64,000 nt of DNA from Medicago truncatula (lineage: Eukaryota; Streptophyta; Magnoliopsida; Fabales; Fabaceae): positions 7,390,501 through 7,454,500 of the forward strand of contig NC_053044.1 in NCBI RefSeq assembly GCF_003473485.1. Direction: 5' to 3'. How positions within the stretch are numbered: the stretch's first letter is position 1; each line of letters opens with the position of its first letter. Below, piece by piece: positions 13,610 to 32,330 of this stretch. A program made the position numbers and the translations under genes. The notes below the pieces were generated by a model that searched no databases, had not been told where the DNA came from, and was given only the letters and a program-made list of their open reading frames with translations.

Positions 13610-13618
13610 TTAATTTAT
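13610..13618. repeat. left 9-bp target-site duplication of the MULE
   Basis: TTAATTTAT, identical to 21155-21163 beyond the right terminus. Nine bp is the diagnostic length for Mutator-like transposition. Confidence 0.93.
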
Positions 13619-13954
13619 GAGTTTTTCTATTTACACCCCATGTTTTTCTGGTTACACCCAAATTTTCTTAAAAGTTTTTTATAATACCAAAATTGCCCTT
13701 TTATATAAATTTTCTTAAAACCCTAATTTTATTCATTGTCAGTGAGTTTCACCCTCTCTTTCACCCCCACAAAGCCATCGATCAAATTTGATGTTCAATA
13801 TCAATCTCCATGGAAATTAAAGAGTGAATCAAAATATTTTTCATCCCTACTCAATTGGATCTAAGTAAGTGAATTTCTTCTTCTATTTGCTAGTTTCAAT
13901 TTTTTTCCTTCAACTGCACTGATGCACTGTACGATTATGGTTTTAATTTACATT

Positions 13955-14530
13955 GTCAAGGTTAACTTAAATTCAGTTTAAGTAGGTTCATGTAAACTTA
14001 ATTTACATGAACCTACTTAAACTGAGTTTACATGAACCTACTTAAACTGAGTTTACATGAACATACTTAAACTGAGTTTACATGAACATACTTAAATTGA
14101 GTTTACATGACCTACTTAAATTTAAATTGAGTGTACATGACCTAACTTACGTAAACTGAGTTTACATGAACCTACTTAAACTGAGTTAACATGAACTTAC
14201 TTAAACTGAGTTTACATGAACATACTTAAACTGAGTTTACATGAACATACTTAAATTGAGTTTACATGACCTACTTAAATTTAAATTGAGTGTACATGAC
14301 CTAACTTACATAAACTGAGTTTACATGAACCTACTTAAATTAAGTTTACATGTGCATACTTAAACTGAGATGACGTACGTATAATCATTGAATAAGATTG
14401 AACTTTTTGCATGATCTACTTAAACTAAGTTTACATGACCTACTTAAACTTAGTTTACATGAACCTACTTAAACCGAGTTTAAGTATATACCCTTAAACT
14501 CAGTTTATATGACCTACTTCAACTAAGTTT
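13955..14530. repeat. tandem array in the MULE leader
   Basis: More than 15 variants of a unit of about 24 bp built on ACTTAAACTGAG and TTTACATGAAC fill most of the sequence before the transposase start. A higher-order block of about 140-150 bp is visible: the series near 14040-14165 recurs near 14205-14325. The first units appear as inverted pairs. It could bind transposase or act as leader/promoter, which is inference. Confidence 0.85.
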
Positions 14531-14679
14531 TAGATTAAATTACAATAGAATCAAGTCTTCTACATTGTTAAAGCAAGTTTTTTTCCTTCTATGCTTCGTT
14601 TCACTCAATTTTAATTAGAGTAGAATTAAGTCTTCTCCATCGTTTAACTCAATTTCAATTTTTTTAATTTTTTCAGTAA

Positions 14680-17392
14680 ATGGACATCAGAGAAGAGAAT
14701 ACTGACGTACAATTAGTAGATTCTACAAGTGTATTTACCACCAATGAAGTGTTTGCTACACGTGCTGATTTATTGAAATGGACTAAAAAAGTTGGAAAGG
14801 AAAATGGTGTTGTTGTTGTGATCTATAGGTCTGAAGTAGCCACAGCAAAACCAGGAACAAGAACAAAGCTAATTCTTGGTTGTGAAAGAAGCGGAAAGTA
14901 TAGGCCTTGGAAGAATCCTAAACCTTTGAGGGGTACGTGCACCAAAAAGTGTGAGTGTCCCTTTAGATTGAGAGGAATACCTTCAAGAGATGGTGAAGGA
15001 TGGACTCTTGTTGTGGAACATGGTATGCACAACCATGATTTATCAAACCTATTGACTGGTCATTCTTTTCTTGGTCGATTATCTCATGAAGAAAATTTTT
15101 TACTCGGTGACATGACAAAGAGTAGGATTAAACCGAGAAATATATTGATGACATTTAGGGATCATAATGCAGAGAGTTTAACAACAATCAACCAGGTTTA
15201 TAATGCACGCCAAACATATCGGTCATCCATTAGGGGAAACAAGACTGAAATGCAACATCTGATGTCGTTGTTGGAGCATGATAAGTACGTCTATTGGTAT
15301 AGAAAGAAGGATGATTCTGATGAGTTGAGGGACATATTATGGGCACATCCAGATTCCATCACACTTTTGAATAAGTTCCATCTAGTTTTGGTTATGGATA
15401 GCACATATAAGACTTGCAAGTATCAATTGCCATTGCTTGAGATTGTCAGTGTTACTTCGACTGGAACAACATTTTCGGTTGCGTTTGCTTATTTACATTC
15501 TGAGTGTAAGGATAACTTTACATGGGCACTAAAAAAGTTGAAAGAACAAATTACATGTGGTGATGTTGGTGTCATTCTTACTGATAGAGATCTTGCCTTG
15601 ATGAATGCAGTGGAACTTGTTTTTCCAGATGCAGTAAATTTATTATGTCTATTTCATGTATGCAAGAATGTGAAAGCCAAATGCAATCTTACCGTGTTTC
15701 CAAAGGAGAAGCGGAAAATGGTCATGGAGGCATGGAAAAGTGTAGTGTATTCTTCTATCGAATCTGAGTATCAACAAAAGTTGGAAGTGTTTAAAGAAAG
15801 TTGTATTGAATGCATCAATTTTCATGATTATGTACATGAACAATGGTTGATTCCTCACAAGGAAAGATTTGTTAAGGCATGGACAAACAAAGTTATGCAC
15901 TTAGGGAACACAACAACAAATAGGGCTAAGTCTGCACATTGGAGTTTGAAGAGGATATTGCAAGATAGCATGGGGGACATATGTAGTGTTTGGGAAGCTG
16001 TCTCTAGCATGATCACACTACAACACAATGAGATAAAATCATCATTTGAAACTAGCATATTTCAAAAGAACATCGATACAATAACATATTGTATGCTCAT
16101 TTATGTGGTCATGTTTCGAGGTATGCATTGTCGCACATTGCTAATGAGTTTGACCGTGTGAAATATGTTGGTATTGATAAGTGTAGTTGTCGTTGCACTA
16201 TTAGAATGACTCATGGCCTACCTTGTGCATGTGAACTAGCCAGATATAGTATGATTCCTAGTGCTATTCCATTGAATGTTGTTCATATTGTCTGGAGGAG
16301 GTTAAATTTTTTTGATGACGGATTCAACAAATCATCTGAATTATCTTTGAAACCTGAGATTGATGCATTAGTGAGAAGATTTGATGAGCTTGATATGTCT
16401 GGAAAAATTGCACTTAAGGGTAAGGTATATGAACTTGCTTTCCCAACAACTACCTCAATGTGCCCACCCTCCAACAAAGCAAACACAAAGGGTGCACCAA
16501 AGAGAGGGAAGAGAAAAATGTCTAATAGAGAAAAATCAACAAAGCGTGATCCATCATGGTGGGAACACGTAGATGCATCTATTGAATCTCAAGCTTCAGT
16601 CTCGAAATGTACACCAAAACCATCGGTTCAGAAGTTTACAACACGACCATCGGTCCATAAGCTTACACCTCAACCTTCGGTCAATAAGGTTGATAAATCT
16701 AGAGTGTTACCCTTTATGGAATGGTTACATAAGGAGATCCATCATTTCATAGATGATGTTCTGGATGTCGGTCCAGATGGTAATTGTGGGTATCGTGCAG
16801 TTGGCGCTTTGCTTGGAAGAGGTGAAGATTCATGGCCTCTAATCCGCCATGAATGTTTGGAAGAGCTTCAAGAGTGGAGGGAAGATTACACAAGGATGTT
16901 TGGTGGGGAAGATTATGTTCAAAATTTGATCCAAAGTTTATATGTTGACGGATATGCAACGAGGGATAAGTGGATGACACTTCCAACAATGGGACATGTC
17001 ATTGCTTCGAAATATAATATCACACTAGTATCATTGTCGGTGGACATGCCAATGACTTTTTTTCCTCTTAGAAGTCCATTTTCACCATCATCTGGTCTCA
17101 TTGTAATTACTTACGTTAATTATTGTCACTTTGTACATGTATATGATTATATCTTTTTAATGTTTTCATTAAAATTACCTATACGAATAAGTTTAAAAAT
17201 TTAAGTTTGTTGTTTCAACAGGTTTATCTGAAGCCTGATTCTCCAATACCACCAGCAACCAATTTGTGGAGAAAGTACTGCAAAGAAGAAGCTCAAACGT
17301 GGGAAACTGCATATCATACACGTGTACAGGCCTGGTTGACGATATTTCCAAAAACTTTTGAACCTGTTATAAACCTTGGTGATCCCTGTTAA
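14680..17392 (+). CDS. MULE transposase fused to OTU cysteine-protease domain
   Basis: ORF 14680-16161 gives an N-terminal FAR1/WRKY-GCM1 zinc finger (C68, C87/C91/C93, H117-x-H119) and the MULE DDE core (D240 in VMDSTY, D302 in LTDRD, H326). The usual third acid, E in the NRxES motif, is K417. The frame then shifts by a net -1 (or +2) near 16,090-16,160 into the second ORF, which has a SWIM finger (KCSCRC..THGLPCAC), a basic spacer with three PSVxK repeats and an OTU domain. That domain has DGNCGYRA with Cys codon 16785-16787 and a His in CHFVHV. An 83-bp intron (17139-17221) follows that His; the last exon ends at 17392. MULE transposases are nuclear; OTU domains are usually deubiquitinases. 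What the fused domain acts on is unknown. Confidence 0.85.
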
Positions 17393-17550
17393 TGATCTTA
17401 TATGTAACCCAATTATCATCACAATACATTTTGGTTTACCCTGATTTTGGTGCTTTAATGTAATAAACTTTTATGCTTATTTGGTTTTTACCCTTGATTT
17501 TGGTTTCAATATTTTTCTTCTTATTCTACTGCACTGTTGTTTCAATTTAC

Positions 17551-17770
17551 ATGTTGAGGTTAACTTAAATTCAGTTTAAGTAAGTTTATGTAAACTTAGT
17601 TTACATAAACTTACTTAAACTGAGTTTACATGACCTAGATAAACTAAGTTAAGATTACGTATACTTATTGAACAAGGTTTAACTTTTACATGGACACCTA
17701 AACTCAATTCACATGAACCTACTTAAACTTAATTTAAGTATGTACACTTGTGTTACAATAACATTTGTAA
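17551..17770. repeat. second repeat array, 3' of the transposase
   Basis: It opens with nearly the same sequence as the leader array (GGTTAACTTAAATTCAGTTT and the following inverted pair) and holds a few ACTTAAACTGAG/TTTACATGA units. The two arrays are in direct orientation and bracket the transposase gene. Confidence 0.75.
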
Positions 17771-17864
17771 TTACCTTTTTATTTTTTAAGAGGTGTACAT
17801 AACATTTGTAATTACCTTTTGTTACGACTAATGACATCAAATTGAAGTAAGGTTAACAATTATA

Positions 17865-18040
17865 GATCAACATATATAAAGTTGCATTTGTGATCAAAAT
17901 ACATAAATCAAAATTGTACTCAAAATACACAAAGTTGAATTTCTAGTCAAGTACATAAAGTTGCACTTGTTTTAAAAAATGCATAAAGTTTCACTTCTAA
18001 TTAAATGCATAAAGTTGCACTTCTAGTTAAATGCATAAAG
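17865..18040. repeat. degenerate minisatellite between the two MULE genes
   Basis: Five to six copies of a unit of about 30 bp containing ACATAAAGTTGCACTT or GCATAAAGTT, ending at the PMD stop codon. Confidence 0.7.
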
Positions 18041-19929
18041 TTATTGAGTCTGTCTAAGTCCTCCATTCCTCTTCCGCTTGTATGTCTCTACGTTTGACCA
18101 GTCTCTACTAACACCATTCTCCACAATTAACAAATTCATTAACTCATTCACAAGTGGGATTCCTTCAGGTGTAATATATTGCTTGTTGAGAAGCGTATTG
18201 AGAATTTGCATGACCCTAGGCTGCAATTATGCAAATATTAAAAGTGATACATGAAAAGTTAAATAACAATTCAAGAAAAATATTATTAACAAATAAAAAT
18301 TAAACAATTACCAATGATGTTGTATCTCTAGATGTGTCTGGATTTTGTCGTATGATGTAAGGATGAGAGATCGCATGAAACCACTCCATATACCCGTCAA
18401 CACAGTCTGACGGGTCATTTACACGTGGACCAGGATCGACCAAATGAATGGCATACTGCGTGAACATAACATCCATATCATTTGGAGTGGTTGAATGACC
18501 TATGATTTCACAAGGTAACGAAGGAATACTTTGTACATGTCCATATTGTCGCAAAAATCTATCAGGAAGATGTGCATACATCTTAAGACCCCACCTGATC
18601 CAACCCCTATAAAGTGATGCATCTTGAAATGGCCAGACATATCTGTGTTTAACTTAAGGATTCCAACAAACCTGATCAACAATCATAATATCAAGAGTTT
18701 GTCTAAAAGGAATCACCTGACCTTTATCCCTCTTCGGCTTCCATTTAATGGATCGGGGTAATTCTTCTTTATACTTTGATTTCAACTTACAAGAATTAGT
18801 TCTTAAAGAAGGGAAGTGTTCATAAACCCATGCCTGTAGATGTAATAAAAACACTTGTGGGTTAATAATTAATTAGATGACTTATCTAGATGAAAGAACA
18901 AAAAGTATAAGTGTAACAATATTGATACCTGCATCAGTGTTAGGTAACTCGAAATAGTTTTGATGTGATGAAGGCTTGCATGGCATAGATTGTCATACAA
19001 ATAGGCAAGGGCAGCAGTACCCCATGCATATCCTCCACAACTATCGAGGTCACGAAAACACTCTAAGTATGCAACATCTACTCCGTTTGCACTCTTGTCA
19101 GTGAAGAGTGTGCACCCAACCAGACAAAATAAAAATGCCCTTGCAGCCTCAACCCAACGTTTCTCACCACAACGTTGATTATACAGATCTAACAACCAAG
19201 AGAATCGAACATGTGACGCATTAGTGACACGAAACTCAGTCCGAGCAAATGATATGGAAACTCCTAATAGTTCAGATAATACAATTGCAGCTTGGTCCCT
19301 GTCAAACACAGTGAAAGTGAAGAATGCCCCAGTGATAGGTATATGTAACAAAGACCACACATCATCCATGGTAATGGTCATCTCTCCAATCGGAAGATGG
19401 AAACTGTTGGTGTCCCGATGCCACCTCTCTACGAAAGCAGAAATGAGTCCCTTGTCTATCATTTCATAGCTGCATTTCAACAAAGGTAGGAGTCCCGATC
19501 CCTCTACTAAGCGTTGTACCTCGGCATGATCAATGATAACACGCTTCATCTTTTTTCCGTTGTTGAATATCCTCAGCTCCCCTCGATCCTGAAATATATG
19601 GAAAATGTATATGAAAAAAGTTAATTTGAAAACAAACATAACGAGAAAGTTTTACAGTAGATTACCTCTCCATTCCAAAGTCGACCAGCCACGTGGTCTC
19701 CGTATGTCTTAAGAACAGAAGTGTCAATAGGACCACCAGGATATCCATCTACACCAGAATCATCAACTTCTATGTTATGAACATCATCCAACTGGGCCTC
19801 CTCTACTTCCTGATGTGGCTCCTCTTCAGCCACCGGATTCGAAGAAGTAACTTTTGTGCGGCCACGTCGACGTGCTGACGCAGTCGGCCTAACACGCCCT
19901 TCTCCATCAGTAGTAAATGTCCGCACCAT
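18041..19929 (-). pseudogene. plant-mobile-domain (PMD, MAIN-like) gene inside the MULE
   Basis: Minus-strand exons 19666-19929, 18929-19588, 18312-18833 and 18041-18220 join in phase 0 with GT-AG ends (542 codons). Exon 1 encodes a charged linker with a basic patch (RRRGRTK). Exons 2-3 encode a plant mobile domain: ERWHRDTNSFHLPIGEMTIT, the DVWSLLHIPITG motif, YAWGTAALAYLY, YVWPFQDASLYRGW, RQYGHVQSIPSLP. One TAA stop (18654-18656, codon 368) interrupts the domain where the family context (WNP-x-VKHRYVW) suggests a Tyr. Host PMD proteins MAIN and MAIL1 act in the nucleus on gene expression and TE silencing, and PMDs are known inside transposons. A single change from an open frame suggests recent decay. 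Confidence 0.8.
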
Positions 19930-21104
19930 GCCTAAACATTAAGTACAAGTTCAAGTAAGATATTGGCATGATCTTTTTCTATTATAGTAAATGTCCGCAC
20001 CATGCCTACTCAATTCATAGTCGAAAAGTTACTTTCAAAGCATCTTGTTATTACCACTTTCATAAAGCTTTTAGAAGAGTAGTCCATTGAGTAAACAAAG
20101 CAACTCCACCAATGGGGTGAATCTATACTTGTCAAAGATAGCATTTGGTTCTATTAATATTGTGCTAAAAATGACCAGCTTCTGAACATTCTTTTGTAAT
20201 TTTTTCTGCCATGTTTAAAACTCTCTTGAATCATAATAATAGTACCATGGTTATTTGATTTAACTATAGATATCTTCTATTTGCTACAATACAAGATAGC
20301 CAACACTAATGTTTGTGCTTTTGGATAGAAGACATTCTTTTGAGATTTCCCTGTATTTTCATGTTTTTGGTTTCAACGATAACATTTCCAAAGCTAGTCA
20401 CTACTACATATACTAAAACTAGCCTCTTTTTCATTTTTAAGGTGATTTACAAATAGTTAATACTTTATGTTACTACTTTTGTCTAAAATATGATTTTTAA
20501 GGCGATTTACAAATATATGATTTTGTTAAAATATGTCTAATGCCATGAGAACCTAGGAACCTTAAAATAAGTCTTCTATTTTGCTAAAATATGGTGAACC
20601 AGCATCCCTTAAAACAAAAAAGAACAGGTATCGTGCAACAGAAAATATGAAGCAGTAAAAAAATCTAAAATTGATAATCATCATATGGAGAAGAACATAC
20701 AACAAACCTAGAAATCTAATTGGCCTGATCAAAACAAAATTGAATTCGAAATAACTAGGATAATAATCGCAGAACTAAGAAAAAGAAAAACACAGAATCG
20801 CAACAATAAATTGGGAGAAATAATTTTACAAAACTTGCTAACCCATAACAAGAAAAACGCAAATTGAACATAAAATCGCAGAACAAGGAAAACACAAAAT
20901 CGCAGAACTGAGAACCCATAACCCATAACACTTGCTAACCTGATTTGCTTCGAATTTTCTTTGAAATCATGAAAGGACGTGAGAAAGTATGGTTTTGAAA
21001 TCGATCGTTTGGAGAAATATGGTTTTGGAAGAGGGGTTTTGGGGTGTAACCTAAAAAGAAGGAATAGACTCTTTGAAAATCAAATTTTATGAAAGGGTAA
21101 TCTT
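19930..21104. other. upstream region of the PMD gene, within the MULE
   Basis: About 1.2 kb of AT-rich sequence between the PMD start codon and the right terminal repeat, presumably promoter and leader. A 23-bp piece covering the PMD start codon (19911-19933) is repeated at 19985-20007. No other gene is visible. Confidence 0.5.
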
Positions 21105-21154
21105 ATCATTTTGGGATGCAACCATGATTAACTAGGGTGCAAGTAGAAAAACTC

Positions 21155-21163
21155 TTAATTTAT
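21155..21163. repeat. right 9-bp target-site duplication of the MULE
   Basis: TTAATTTAT, identical to 13610-13618. Confidence 0.93.
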
Positions 21164-31433: not shown

Positions 31434-32330
31434 TGTTGTGAATCCGGTTGAAACTCACACCAATGAAAAACAAAGATGTGTGGAGCAAGAGATAGTGGTA
31501 ATCTATGAGCAAAATGGTTTCCAAGCAACAACAACAAAACAGCCCTAGACTAGTGTAGAGCAAAACCACACAAAGAGATAACAAAGCATAAACAAGATAA
31601 GCAAGAAAGGAAGAACAAAACACCAAGAAGATTGTTGACCCAGTTCAGCCAATATGGCCTAATCTGGGGGAGAGAGCAGCTCTCCAATCCAATATGATGA
31701 AAGTGTTACAAAGGGTTACAAGAAACAATAGCCTTCAAGCTTACACAAGAACAAACCCTAGATTCTACCCTTTGGTATTTCCCCACTCTCACAATATGAA
31801 CCCTAAAAGAGAAGACACTAGAGGAAGCTTTAGATCCTTCCAACTAATGAACTCCTCACTACCCAAGGTGATTACAATGTTTTTTCCCAACCCAAGAGAC
31901 ACTCTCAACAAAGACACTCAACCCTTTGGTTCCCTCCTTTGTTATCCAAGTTTCTCTCTCTAAGCTCTTCCAAGCTCTATCCCAAATCTGCACAAGAACA
32001 CAATATATACTAGTCTTCCTCTGAAGAAATCGTGCCATGATTTTCAAATCGTGTCACGATTTGCGTCTGACCCAAGGTATGACCAGTCCTTATCAGTGAT
32101 ACTTAACGAGCAAGTTTCTGAATCGTGTCACGATTTCCCAAGATCGTGCCACGATTTGGCGTCCTGCAAACTAGCTCACGGCACCTTGAAATTGTGTCAC
32201 GATGCCAAAATCGTGTCACGATTTCTCTGTTCTTCCAGAACACAAATTTGAAGCCAATATCAACAATATCCTATAGAGTTGTCTTGTTAGGGAATTACAA
32301 GATGCATGTTGACTCAATTTAAAATACTAC
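31434..32330. mobile_element. LTR-like sequence, probably a Copia-type fossil
   Basis: The stretch contains a CCCAGTTC...CTAATCTGGGGGAG pattern that I associate with LTRs of legume Copia elements, and a cluster of palindromic motifs near 32,028-32,226. No primer-binding site, mate LTR or target duplication was identified, so edges and family are uncertain. Confidence 0.3.
32028..32226. repeat. cluster of AATCGTGnCACGATT palindromes
   Basis: Six copies or near-copies of the perfect or near-perfect palindrome AAATCGTGTCACGATTT within 200 bp, irregularly spaced, in both coupled and single form. Confidence 0.8.

What the first reader, a model, noticed from the sequence alone, without database searches (positions are those of the whole stretch)
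13619..21154. One MULE carries both an OTU-protease-fused transposase and a PMD gene
Seen: matching terminal repeats, perfect 9-bp TSD, plus-strand transposase-OTU gene, minus-strand plant-mobile-domain gene. Known: MULEs capture host genes and some carry ULP1-type peptidases; PMD proteins (MAIN, MAIL1) act in nuclear gene regulation and TE silencing. Inference: an OTU peptidase plus a PMD protein would be a two-part counter-silencing kit, one able to strip ubiquitin from a chromatin or silencing factor, the other able to compete with host PMD proteins. Convergent arrangement inside one pair of termini argues that both travel together.
Basis: partly seen in the sequence, partly recalled or inferred. 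Interest (0 to 1): 0.82.

Follow-up and report, generated by a model that had tools for sequence, protein, structure and literature searches.

The report
Two-gene plant transposon with OTU and PMD
A plant cut-and-paste transposon carries a transposase fused to a ubiquitin-cutter-like domain, plus a second, opposing gene related to host silencing proteins; the pairing is old and conserved, and the second gene may help the element escape silencing.

Summary
The element spans 13619-21154, with inverted ends (18/20 bases) and a perfect 9-bp duplication. Its plus-strand gene is a MULE transposase fused to a divergent OTU domain. A convergent minus-strand gene has four exons and encodes a plant-mobile-domain (PMD) protein. 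A second copy (0.30% diverged) sits in a different 9-bp site with both genes. Each of these two copies has disabling mutations.

The pair is not a recent host-gene capture. The same convergent arrangement recurs in three diverged lineages in this genome. In a sister family (about 41% identical transposase) two two-gene elements have their own ends and duplications. OTU and PMD are both under purifying selection. In the sister family most scored places show only one of the two genes, so "both travel together" is too strong.

This element holds 22 copies of one palindromic motif in two non-coding tandem arrays, recalling the targets of VANC anti-silencing proteins. The sister family has a sparser, different motif; the third lineage has none that I could find. 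My best reading, a VANC-like self-targeting anti-silencing PMD, is inferred, not shown. An anti-silencing role for MULE PMDs was already proposed in print. An OTU-fused MULE with a convergent PMD gene was not found in my searches.

The parts
13610..13618 (.). left 9-bp target-site duplication TTAATTTAT
13619..13660 (+). left terminal inverted repeat (18/20 outer bases match the right end)
   Evidence: the left 400 bp match at 94-100% in all 40 places scored, this one included
13968..14530 (+). about 25-bp tandem array carrying the palindrome TAAACTNAGTTTA, upstream of the transposase gene
   Evidence: 17 of the 22 window matches (up to 1 mismatch) are here
14680..17132 (+). transposase-OTU gene, exon 1: AFT zinc finger (FAR1-type, label recalled), MULE domain, SWIM-like segment (read by eye), 27-bp coding repeats, OTU domain (about 16692-17132). 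Frameshift near 16063 in this copy
17222..17392 (+). transposase-OTU gene, last exon (GT/AG intron 17133-17221)
   Evidence: matched in L039, L040, L043
17563..17740 (+). second array of the same palindrome, between the two genes
   Evidence: 5 of 22 matches
17866..18042 (.). 26-bp repeats (AAATGCATAAAGTTGCACTTCTAATT) just downstream of the PMD gene
   Evidence: related repeat in L040 3124-3223
18041..18220 (-). PMD gene exon 4 with stop codon
   Evidence: exon model; not tested for conservation
18312..18833 (-). PMD gene exon 3 (C-terminal part of PF10536, E=6.6e-5 for the part after the stop); premature stop at 18654-18656 in this copy
18929..19588 (-). PMD gene exon 2 (core of PF10536, E=6.4e-41)
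19666..19929 (-). PMD gene exon 1 (matched in L039, L040, L041, L042, L044, L046; not in L045 or L047)
21113..21154 (-). right terminal inverted repeat
21155..21163 (.). right 9-bp target-site duplication TTAATTTAT

Best explanation
This is a member of an old lineage of two-gene MULE transposons. SHOWN: gene 1 encodes a MULE transposase with a C-terminal OTU-type domain. Gene 2 runs convergently and encodes a four-exon PMD protein (exon model by splice borders and homology). The pair sits between one set of ends, occurs in two sites with different duplications, recurs in three diverged lineages, and both added parts are under purifying selection. SHOWN: this element carries its own palindromic motif in about 25-bp tandem arrays upstream of gene 1 and between the genes; a sister family has a different, sparser palindrome near its ends and between the genes. 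INFERRED: the PMD protein works like VANC of Arabidopsis VANDAL MULEs. It would bind the element's own motif arrays and relieve silencing of the transposase gene, and of short derivatives that keep the arrays. The OTU domain would act in cis on the transposase complex, trimming ubiquitin to keep the transposase stable or to steer repair of the cut sites.
For: Two copies in different 9-bp sites hold both genes. Two-gene sister elements: C7:49520965-49529788 (duplication AAAATTTTA, arms 14/14, both ends also match the family ends) and C5:30222347-30232302 (TATAGAGAA, arms 12/14; its far end rests on arms and duplication only, and both its genes have stops). Within 10 kb of 179 transposase/OTU places: 12 PMDs downstream and convergent, 2 downstream same strand, 0 upstream; chance expects 0.38 per class (the 12 fall into three lineages of 3, 3 and 6, so they are not independent). 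PMD exons 1-3 match in L041 and L042. dN/dS: OTU 0.128 (0.06-0.24) and 0.153 (0.08-0.27); PMD exons 2+3 0.35 (0.26-0.49); frame-shifted controls on two PMD segments 0.91-2.2. dS of partners: window-L040 0.33 transposase, 0.32 OTU, 0.47 PMD; L044-L047 0.51 OTU, L041-L047 0.37-0.47 PMD. All 22 TAAACTNAGTTTA matches in 64 kb lie in non-coding parts of this element, chance 0.72; in a stricter test of spaced palindromes this element shows 12 exact copies, 0 of 50 shuffles show any. 5 of 5 short copies keep 5-8. VANC21 binds a short motif in tandem arrays in such places; VANC6 has other motifs; VANC carries DUF1985 (PMC5735166, passages). The DUF1985 profile's single hit in this genome (E=5.4e-5, below its cut-off) is a PMD; 3 of 7 PMDs give weak DUF1985 hits.
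Against: No expression, binding or methylation data. PMD-DUF1985 kinship is below the curated cut-off. The sister family has only 2-5 motif copies per end or spacer (up to 2 mismatches) and fails the stricter test (L042, L045, L061). The third lineage (L041, L044, L047) shows no repeated palindrome, only 85-bp repeats between the genes in L041 and L044. The arrays could be transposase-binding sites. OTU activity is unproven, and the first residue of the DGNC motif is Asn in L040. The two near-identical copies are both damaged. PMD is less constrained than OTU (exon 3 alone 0.48, exon 1 0.47).
Confidence: 0.38

Rival explanations
1. PMD as decoy: the element's PMD protein competes with host MAIN/MAIL1 for PP7L or other partners and so weakens the host PMD silencing pathway globally.
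For: In the trees the element PMDs join L049, which I take from recall for a host MAIN/MAIL-type gene, away from L048 and from repeated, presumed-Gypsy PMDs. MAIN and MAIL1 act in TE silencing (PMC5418596, PMC7156037, passages).
Against: Does not explain the palindrome arrays. PMD identity to L049 is only 38%. main and mail1 null mutants have a strong developmental phenotype (PMC9899485, passages), a costly route for an element. PP7L binding not testable here.
Confidence: 0.2
2. PMD as transposition helper: gene 2 is a second transposition protein (as mudrB is for MuDR, recalled) needed for integration or end recognition, and the palindromes are transposase or helper binding sites.
For: Convergent two-gene layout as in MuDR (recalled). 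Sister-family palindromes lie mostly within about 170 bp of both ends. A PMD-only and a transposase-only element share ends, and both genes occur in many places, as expected if both proteins work in trans.
Against: In the window element the arrays lie 350-890 bp from the left end and in the middle, none near the right end. Gypsy elements also carry PMDs (PMC5418596, passages) although they do not use a MULE transposase.
Confidence: 0.27
3. Passenger capture: OTU and PMD are host fragments picked up by chance and decaying.
For: MULEs do capture genes (recalled; also stated in PMC5418596, passages). The two youngest copies are both broken.
Against: Shared by three diverged lineages, dN/dS well below 1, homologous exons.
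Confidence: 0.04
4. Chance neighbours or nested insertion: the PMD gene belongs to another element inserted into the MULE.
For: A PMD-only element exists in the sister family.
Against: Same order and orientation in independent families, no internal family ends between the genes in L042 or L045, both genes present in two sites with different duplications.
Confidence: 0.02

Closest known systems
VANDAL21/Hiun and VANDAL6 MULEs of Arabidopsis (VANA transposase, VANB, VANC anti-silencing protein)
   Same: MULE with an extra conserved gene; short motifs in tandem arrays in non-coding DNA upstream of the transposase gene and elsewhere; motif differs between families; VANC carries DUF1985, to which PMD is perhaps distantly related
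   Different: Gene is PMD, with DUF1985 only below cut-off; transposase carries OTU; terminal inverted repeats present here (VANDALs lack them, recalled); binding and demethylation untested
PMD-C genes in grass and Amborella MULEs (Ikeda et al. 2017, PMC5418596, passages)
   Same: PMD in a MULE; anti-silencing use proposed
   Different: There described as fusions with the transposase, and a later paper says eudicots contain mainly genic PMD-C (PMC7156037, passages); here a separate convergent four-exon gene, with OTU on the transposase, in a genome that I take for a legume
Ginger1 DNA transposons (PMC2836005, passages)
   Same: transposase with a C-terminal OTU (or Ulp1) domain; the paper proposes that the ubiquitin pathway takes part in transposition, perhaps through DNA repair, and lists Ulp1 in Mutator elements and OTU in Helitrons
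   Different: Gypsy-integrase-like transposase in animals; no PMD; the passages do not mention OTU in Mutator elements
MuDR (mudrA/mudrB) of maize
   Same: two convergent genes in a MULE (recalled)
   Different: mudrB is unrelated to PMD (recalled); no OTU
ULP1-carrying MULEs (e.g. those of Hoen et al. 2006, cited in PMC2836005)
   Same: MULE with a ubiquitin-like-modifier peptidase
   Different: peptidase here is OTU, fused to the transposase
Pack-MULEs
   Same: MULE ends holding non-transposase coding sequence (recalled)
   Different: here a conserved gene pair under selection, with transposase

Membership tests
Mutator-like element (MULE) | MULE transposase domain PF10551 | tested here: met
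   E=2.3e-24
Mutator-like element (MULE) | 9-bp target-site duplication | tested here: met
   perfect in two full copies and in three of five short copies, a fourth being all A
Mutator-like element (MULE) | terminal inverted repeats | tested here: met
   18/20 outer bases
OTU peptidase | sequence profile match | tested here: met
   OTUD5 E=2.8e-4, OTUD3 E=0.0043 with an 8-sequence profile; Pfam PF02338 only E=0.013 in a relative, below cut-off, and no hit in the window copy
OTU peptidase | fold | tested here: inconclusive
   single-sequence model pLDDT 38, unusable
OTU peptidase | catalytic Cys and His | tested here: inconclusive
   Cys invariant in 8 of 8; the His of HFV is present in the 5 of 8 sequences that reach it, the other 3 stop before it; roles recalled, activity untested
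Plant mobile domain protein | PF10536 | tested here: met
   E=6.4e-41
PMD-C clade (MAIN/MAIL) | groups with genic PMD-C rather than PMD-A or PMD-B | tested here: inconclusive
   groups with L049 (support 97-100) away from L048 and L050-L052, but the clade names of those references are recalled or presumed, and only one genic PMD-C-like sequence was in the tree
VANC-type anti-silencing MULE | DUF1985 at curated cut-off | tested here: not met
   E=0.024 in the window PMD, best of seven PMDs 0.0051 (L049), cut-off 35.1 bits
VANC-type anti-silencing MULE | short motif in tandem arrays in non-coding DNA of the element | tested here: met
   met in the window family; sparse in the sister family and not found in the third lineage
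VANC-type anti-silencing MULE | protein binds the motif and removes methylation | not testable with these tools
   needs EMSA and bisulfite sequencing
Pack-MULE | captured host fragments without a conserved transposase partner | tested here: not met
   transposase present, pair conserved

The most novel reading that the evidence does not exclude
A whole class of plant MULEs carries a dedicated anti-silencing gene made from a PMD: each family's PMD protein reads that family's own palindromes, as VANC does, and the OTU on the transposase is its enzymatic arm. In one family the two genes have largely separated onto different elements with common ends, so that silencing relief and transposase are supplied in trans: a two-part transposon. 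PMD and VANC's DUF1985 would be one ancient superfamily from which hosts later drew MAIN/MAIL silencing proteins.
Probability: 0.17. Interest if true: 0.85.

Novelty: new variant of a known kind. Interest (0 to 1): 0.57.

Why it matters
PMD is described as a domain of unknown function, and how MAIN and MAIL1 silence transposons is unclear (PMC7156037, PMC9899485, passages). If transposon PMDs bind their own family's arrays, that gives the domain a first testable biochemical activity, may link it to VANC, and explains why both hosts and transposons keep PMDs. OTU or Ulp1 on transposases has been noted before in Ginger1, and Ulp1 in Mutator elements (PMC2836005, passages); a common and strongly constrained OTU on a plant MULE transposase strengthens the idea that ubiquitin removal serves transposition. 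My searches for MULE or Mutator with OTU (0 papers; 72: 3 papers, unrelated by title; 17: 53 papers with two of three terms, 20 listed) showed no paper on that combination.

Tried and rejected
Pfam OTU on the window protein: no hit, only a weak SCD match that I take for false. phmmer to PDB: best E=0.13, an entry named RNA-dependent RNA polymerase. Single-sequence AlphaFold of the OTU part: pLDDT 38, no fold search made. First PMD tree was wrong because minus-strand loci were read on the plus strand (one locus appeared on two branches); redone. Search for OTU/transposase in the 1.5-kb flanks of L011-L038 found nothing, but these flanks are too short. Ends with a duplication were not found for L040, L041, L042, L043 and L047 (L042's right end only), and were not scanned for L044 and L045 beyond a search with sister-family ends; all these count as lineages with the gene pair (L043: transposase-OTU only), not as intact elements. 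C1:13808 has a left end, but no right end or duplication was found. The test for exact even palindromes missed even the window's own motif, so I repeated it with spaced palindromes, which finds the window array but none in L040-L045, L047 or L061. PMD selection in 19 copies not linked to a listed transposase: 25 non-synonymous to 22 synonymous singletons and 6 to 9 shared; 18 of 19 keep exon 2 open, while 2 of 4 linked copies have stops. The copies were the best protein matches, so this test is biased, and 17 columns were set aside. dN/dS among L042, L045 and L046 is uninformative (few changes). Literature: 8 of 10 searches used.

Dropped rows: one search used all 150 OTU rows, 87 of 88 transposase rows, 146 of 197 PMD matches (rows not listed and split fragments left out) and 80 of 139; one search used 97 of 99 and 138 of 139. 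The MULE list was not used in the counts. The genome search scores only the best candidates, so copy counts are lower bounds and the linkage figures are affected by unscored places.
Full report
What was checked. The window is G000:C3:7390501-7454500 of a 430-Mb genome with eight large contigs. From size and contig number I take it to be a Medicago-like legume, but no tool named it. The element at 13619-21154 is real: inverted ends matching at 18 of 20 outer bases, and a perfect 9-bp duplication TTAATTTAT. The proof that these are the true ends is a second copy on C1, with 22 substitutions in 7419 aligned columns, and the same ends in a different perfect 9-bp duplication, TAAAAATAA. Of 706 candidate places for the 400-bp left end, 40 were scored, and all 40 (the window and C1 copies included) match in full at 94-100%. 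Five short copies of about 0.8-1.0 kb were read: all have both ends, three have informative perfect duplications, one an all-A one, one an imperfect one.

The genes. Gene 1 (14680-17392, one GT/AG intron) has an AFT-type zinc finger, the MULE transposase domain (E=2.3e-24) and, after a SWIM-like segment that I read by eye, a C-terminal OTU domain. The OTU assignment needed relatives: alone, the window protein misses Pfam OTU, but a profile of eight related domains finds OTUD5 (E=2.8e-4) and OTUD3 (E=0.0043). The cysteine is invariant in the eight sequences, and the motif HFV is present in the five that reach that far. Gene 2 (19929-18041, minus strand) has four exons with three GT/AG introns and would encode 541 residues; exon 2 hits PMD at E=6.4e-41. 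In the window copy gene 1 is frame-shifted and gene 2 has a premature stop. In the C1 copy gene 2 is open and gene 1 has a premature stop. So neither copy looks autonomous now, although the family moved recently.

Is the pair old? Yes. Among 179 places with a related transposase or OTU, 12 have a PMD downstream on the opposite strand within 10 kb, 2 have one downstream on the same strand, and none has one upstream, against 0.38 expected by chance for each class. The 12 fall into three lineages (3, 3 and 6), so they are not independent, but the bias to one arrangement is clear. The lineages are: window, C1 and C6 copies (L039, L040); L041, L044 and L047; and a sister family (L042, L045 and four more). 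Between lineages the transposases are about 38-43% identical and PMD exon 2 about 30-37%; exons 1, 2 and 3 all match in L041 and L042, while some other loci miss exon 1 or 3. In the sister family two two-gene elements have their own ends and duplications: C7:49520965-49529788 (AAAATTTTA, arms 14/14) and C5:30222347-30232302 (TATAGAGAA, arms 12/14). Their genes are placed by search hits, their interiors were not read through, and in the C5 element both genes have stops. OTU and PMD agree that L047 is closest to L041/L044, and synonymous distances of partners are of similar size. The natural reading is common descent of the pair, not capture by this element.

Is it used? Between window (or C1) and C6 copies dN/dS is 0.128 for OTU (95% bootstrap 0.06-0.24), 0.27 for the transposase core and 0.35 (0.26-0.49) for PMD exons 2 and 3 together; PMD exon 3 alone gives 0.48 (0.29-0.82) and exon 1 0.47 (0.26-0.84). 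Between L044 and L047 the OTU value is 0.153; between L041 and L047 PMD gives 0.39 and 0.48. Frame-shifted controls on two PMD segments give 0.91-2.2. Both added parts are constrained, the OTU more than the transposase itself, the PMD less.

Results against 'always together'. A C2 relative of the window family (87% identical in the transposase-OTU part) has no PMD in the 9.5 kb read. In the sister family, an element with transposase-OTU only (L061, duplication ATAGAAAAG) and one with PMD only (L046, duplication TTTATTTAA) share the same ends at 84-94% over about 110-135 bp. Of the scored places, 7 of 97 transposases and 7 of 138 PMDs are within 12 kb of each other. In 19 of the best PMD copies without a listed transposase nearby, 18 keep exon 2 open, though these were chosen by protein similarity. 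L046 alone was verified as a PMD-only element and L061 alone as a transposase-only one.

Where the PMD belongs. In trees of 33 and 35 PMD segments from this genome, one group of 28 (support 88-90; 100 without L012 and L013) holds the window PMD, the six other PMDs with a transposase or OTU beside them, and L046; the remaining 20 were not shown to lie in MULEs. This group joins L049 with 97-100 support. L049's sequence recalls MAIN/MAIL proteins (recalled, not tested). The group lies away from a clustered gene that I call PMD-B-like (L048) and from repeated PMDs that I presume to be the Gypsy kind. Published work describes MULE PMDs as captured PMD-C fused to the transposase in grasses and Amborella, and suggests an anti-silencing use (PMC5418596, passages; also PMC8616336, passages). 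A separate convergent PMD gene with an OTU-carrying transposase was not found by searches of the held library (the listings and, for the four papers, passages were seen).

How it may work. The element has about 25-bp tandem repeats upstream of gene 1 and between the genes. They carry a palindrome TAAACTNAGTTTA: all 22 matches (up to one mismatch) in the 64-kb window are in these two non-coding arrays, against 0.72 by chance. The five short copies keep 5 to 8 each. The sister family has a different palindrome, GGCAGTTAACTGCC, near both ends and between the genes, and keeps it in its one-gene elements, but with few copies, and it fails a stricter clustering test that the window element passes. 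The third lineage (L041, L044, L047) shows none. The pattern in this element resembles the VANC system, where VANC21 binds a short motif arrayed in tandem in non-coding parts of its own MULE, VANC6 has other motifs, and both relieve methylation (PMC5735166, passages). VANC carries DUF1985. The DUF1985 profile, searched over the whole genome, has one hit (E=5.4e-5, below cut-off), and that place is a PMD relative. Three of seven PMDs, L049 among them, hit DUF1985 weakly. So a distant kinship of PMD and DUF1985 is plausible but not established, and the arrays might instead serve the transposase. For OTU, a paper on Ginger1 transposons, whose transposases carry OTU or Ulp1, proposes a role in transposition through DNA repair (PMC2836005, passages).

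Verdict. The capture model is wrong for this element. Silencing escape is a good hypothesis for PMD, already voiced in print, now with a concrete target motif to test. For OTU the function is open.

Noticed in passing
G000:C3:23032041-23266833: A cluster of 17 PMD hits within 235 kb, 13 of them without internal stops, among the best PF10536 hits of the genome; L048 is one. Looks like a host PMD gene array, unlike the transposon PMDs.
   Followed up: partly
G000 genome-wide: OTU-fused MULE transposases are common in this genome (150 OTU matches scored; in the sister family five open frames of 995 aa without stops), most without a PMD close by in my lists.
   Followed up: partly
L046 (G000:C7:55443279-55447571): A PMD-only element of 4.3 kb with good ends and a perfect 9-bp duplication, from a family with at least 138 scored PMD places.
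   Followed up: yes
G000 genome-wide: DUF1985, the domain of VANC, has no above-cut-off match in this genome (64 of 64 candidates scored), while PMD places scored number well over 100.
   Followed up: partly
window about 32048-32210, and L046:7073-7218 (outside that element): Another cluster of spaced palindromes with arm ATCGTG, four copies at each of the two places; perhaps the array of another repeat.
   Followed up: no
G000:C1:45333149-45344620: Three equal-scoring MULE transposase hits at 5.6-kb spacing: a tandem array of an element or an assembly repeat.
   Followed up: no
L040:6551-6694: A lone end of the sister family, with its palindrome, lies downstream of the C6 copy of the window family.
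   Followed up: no
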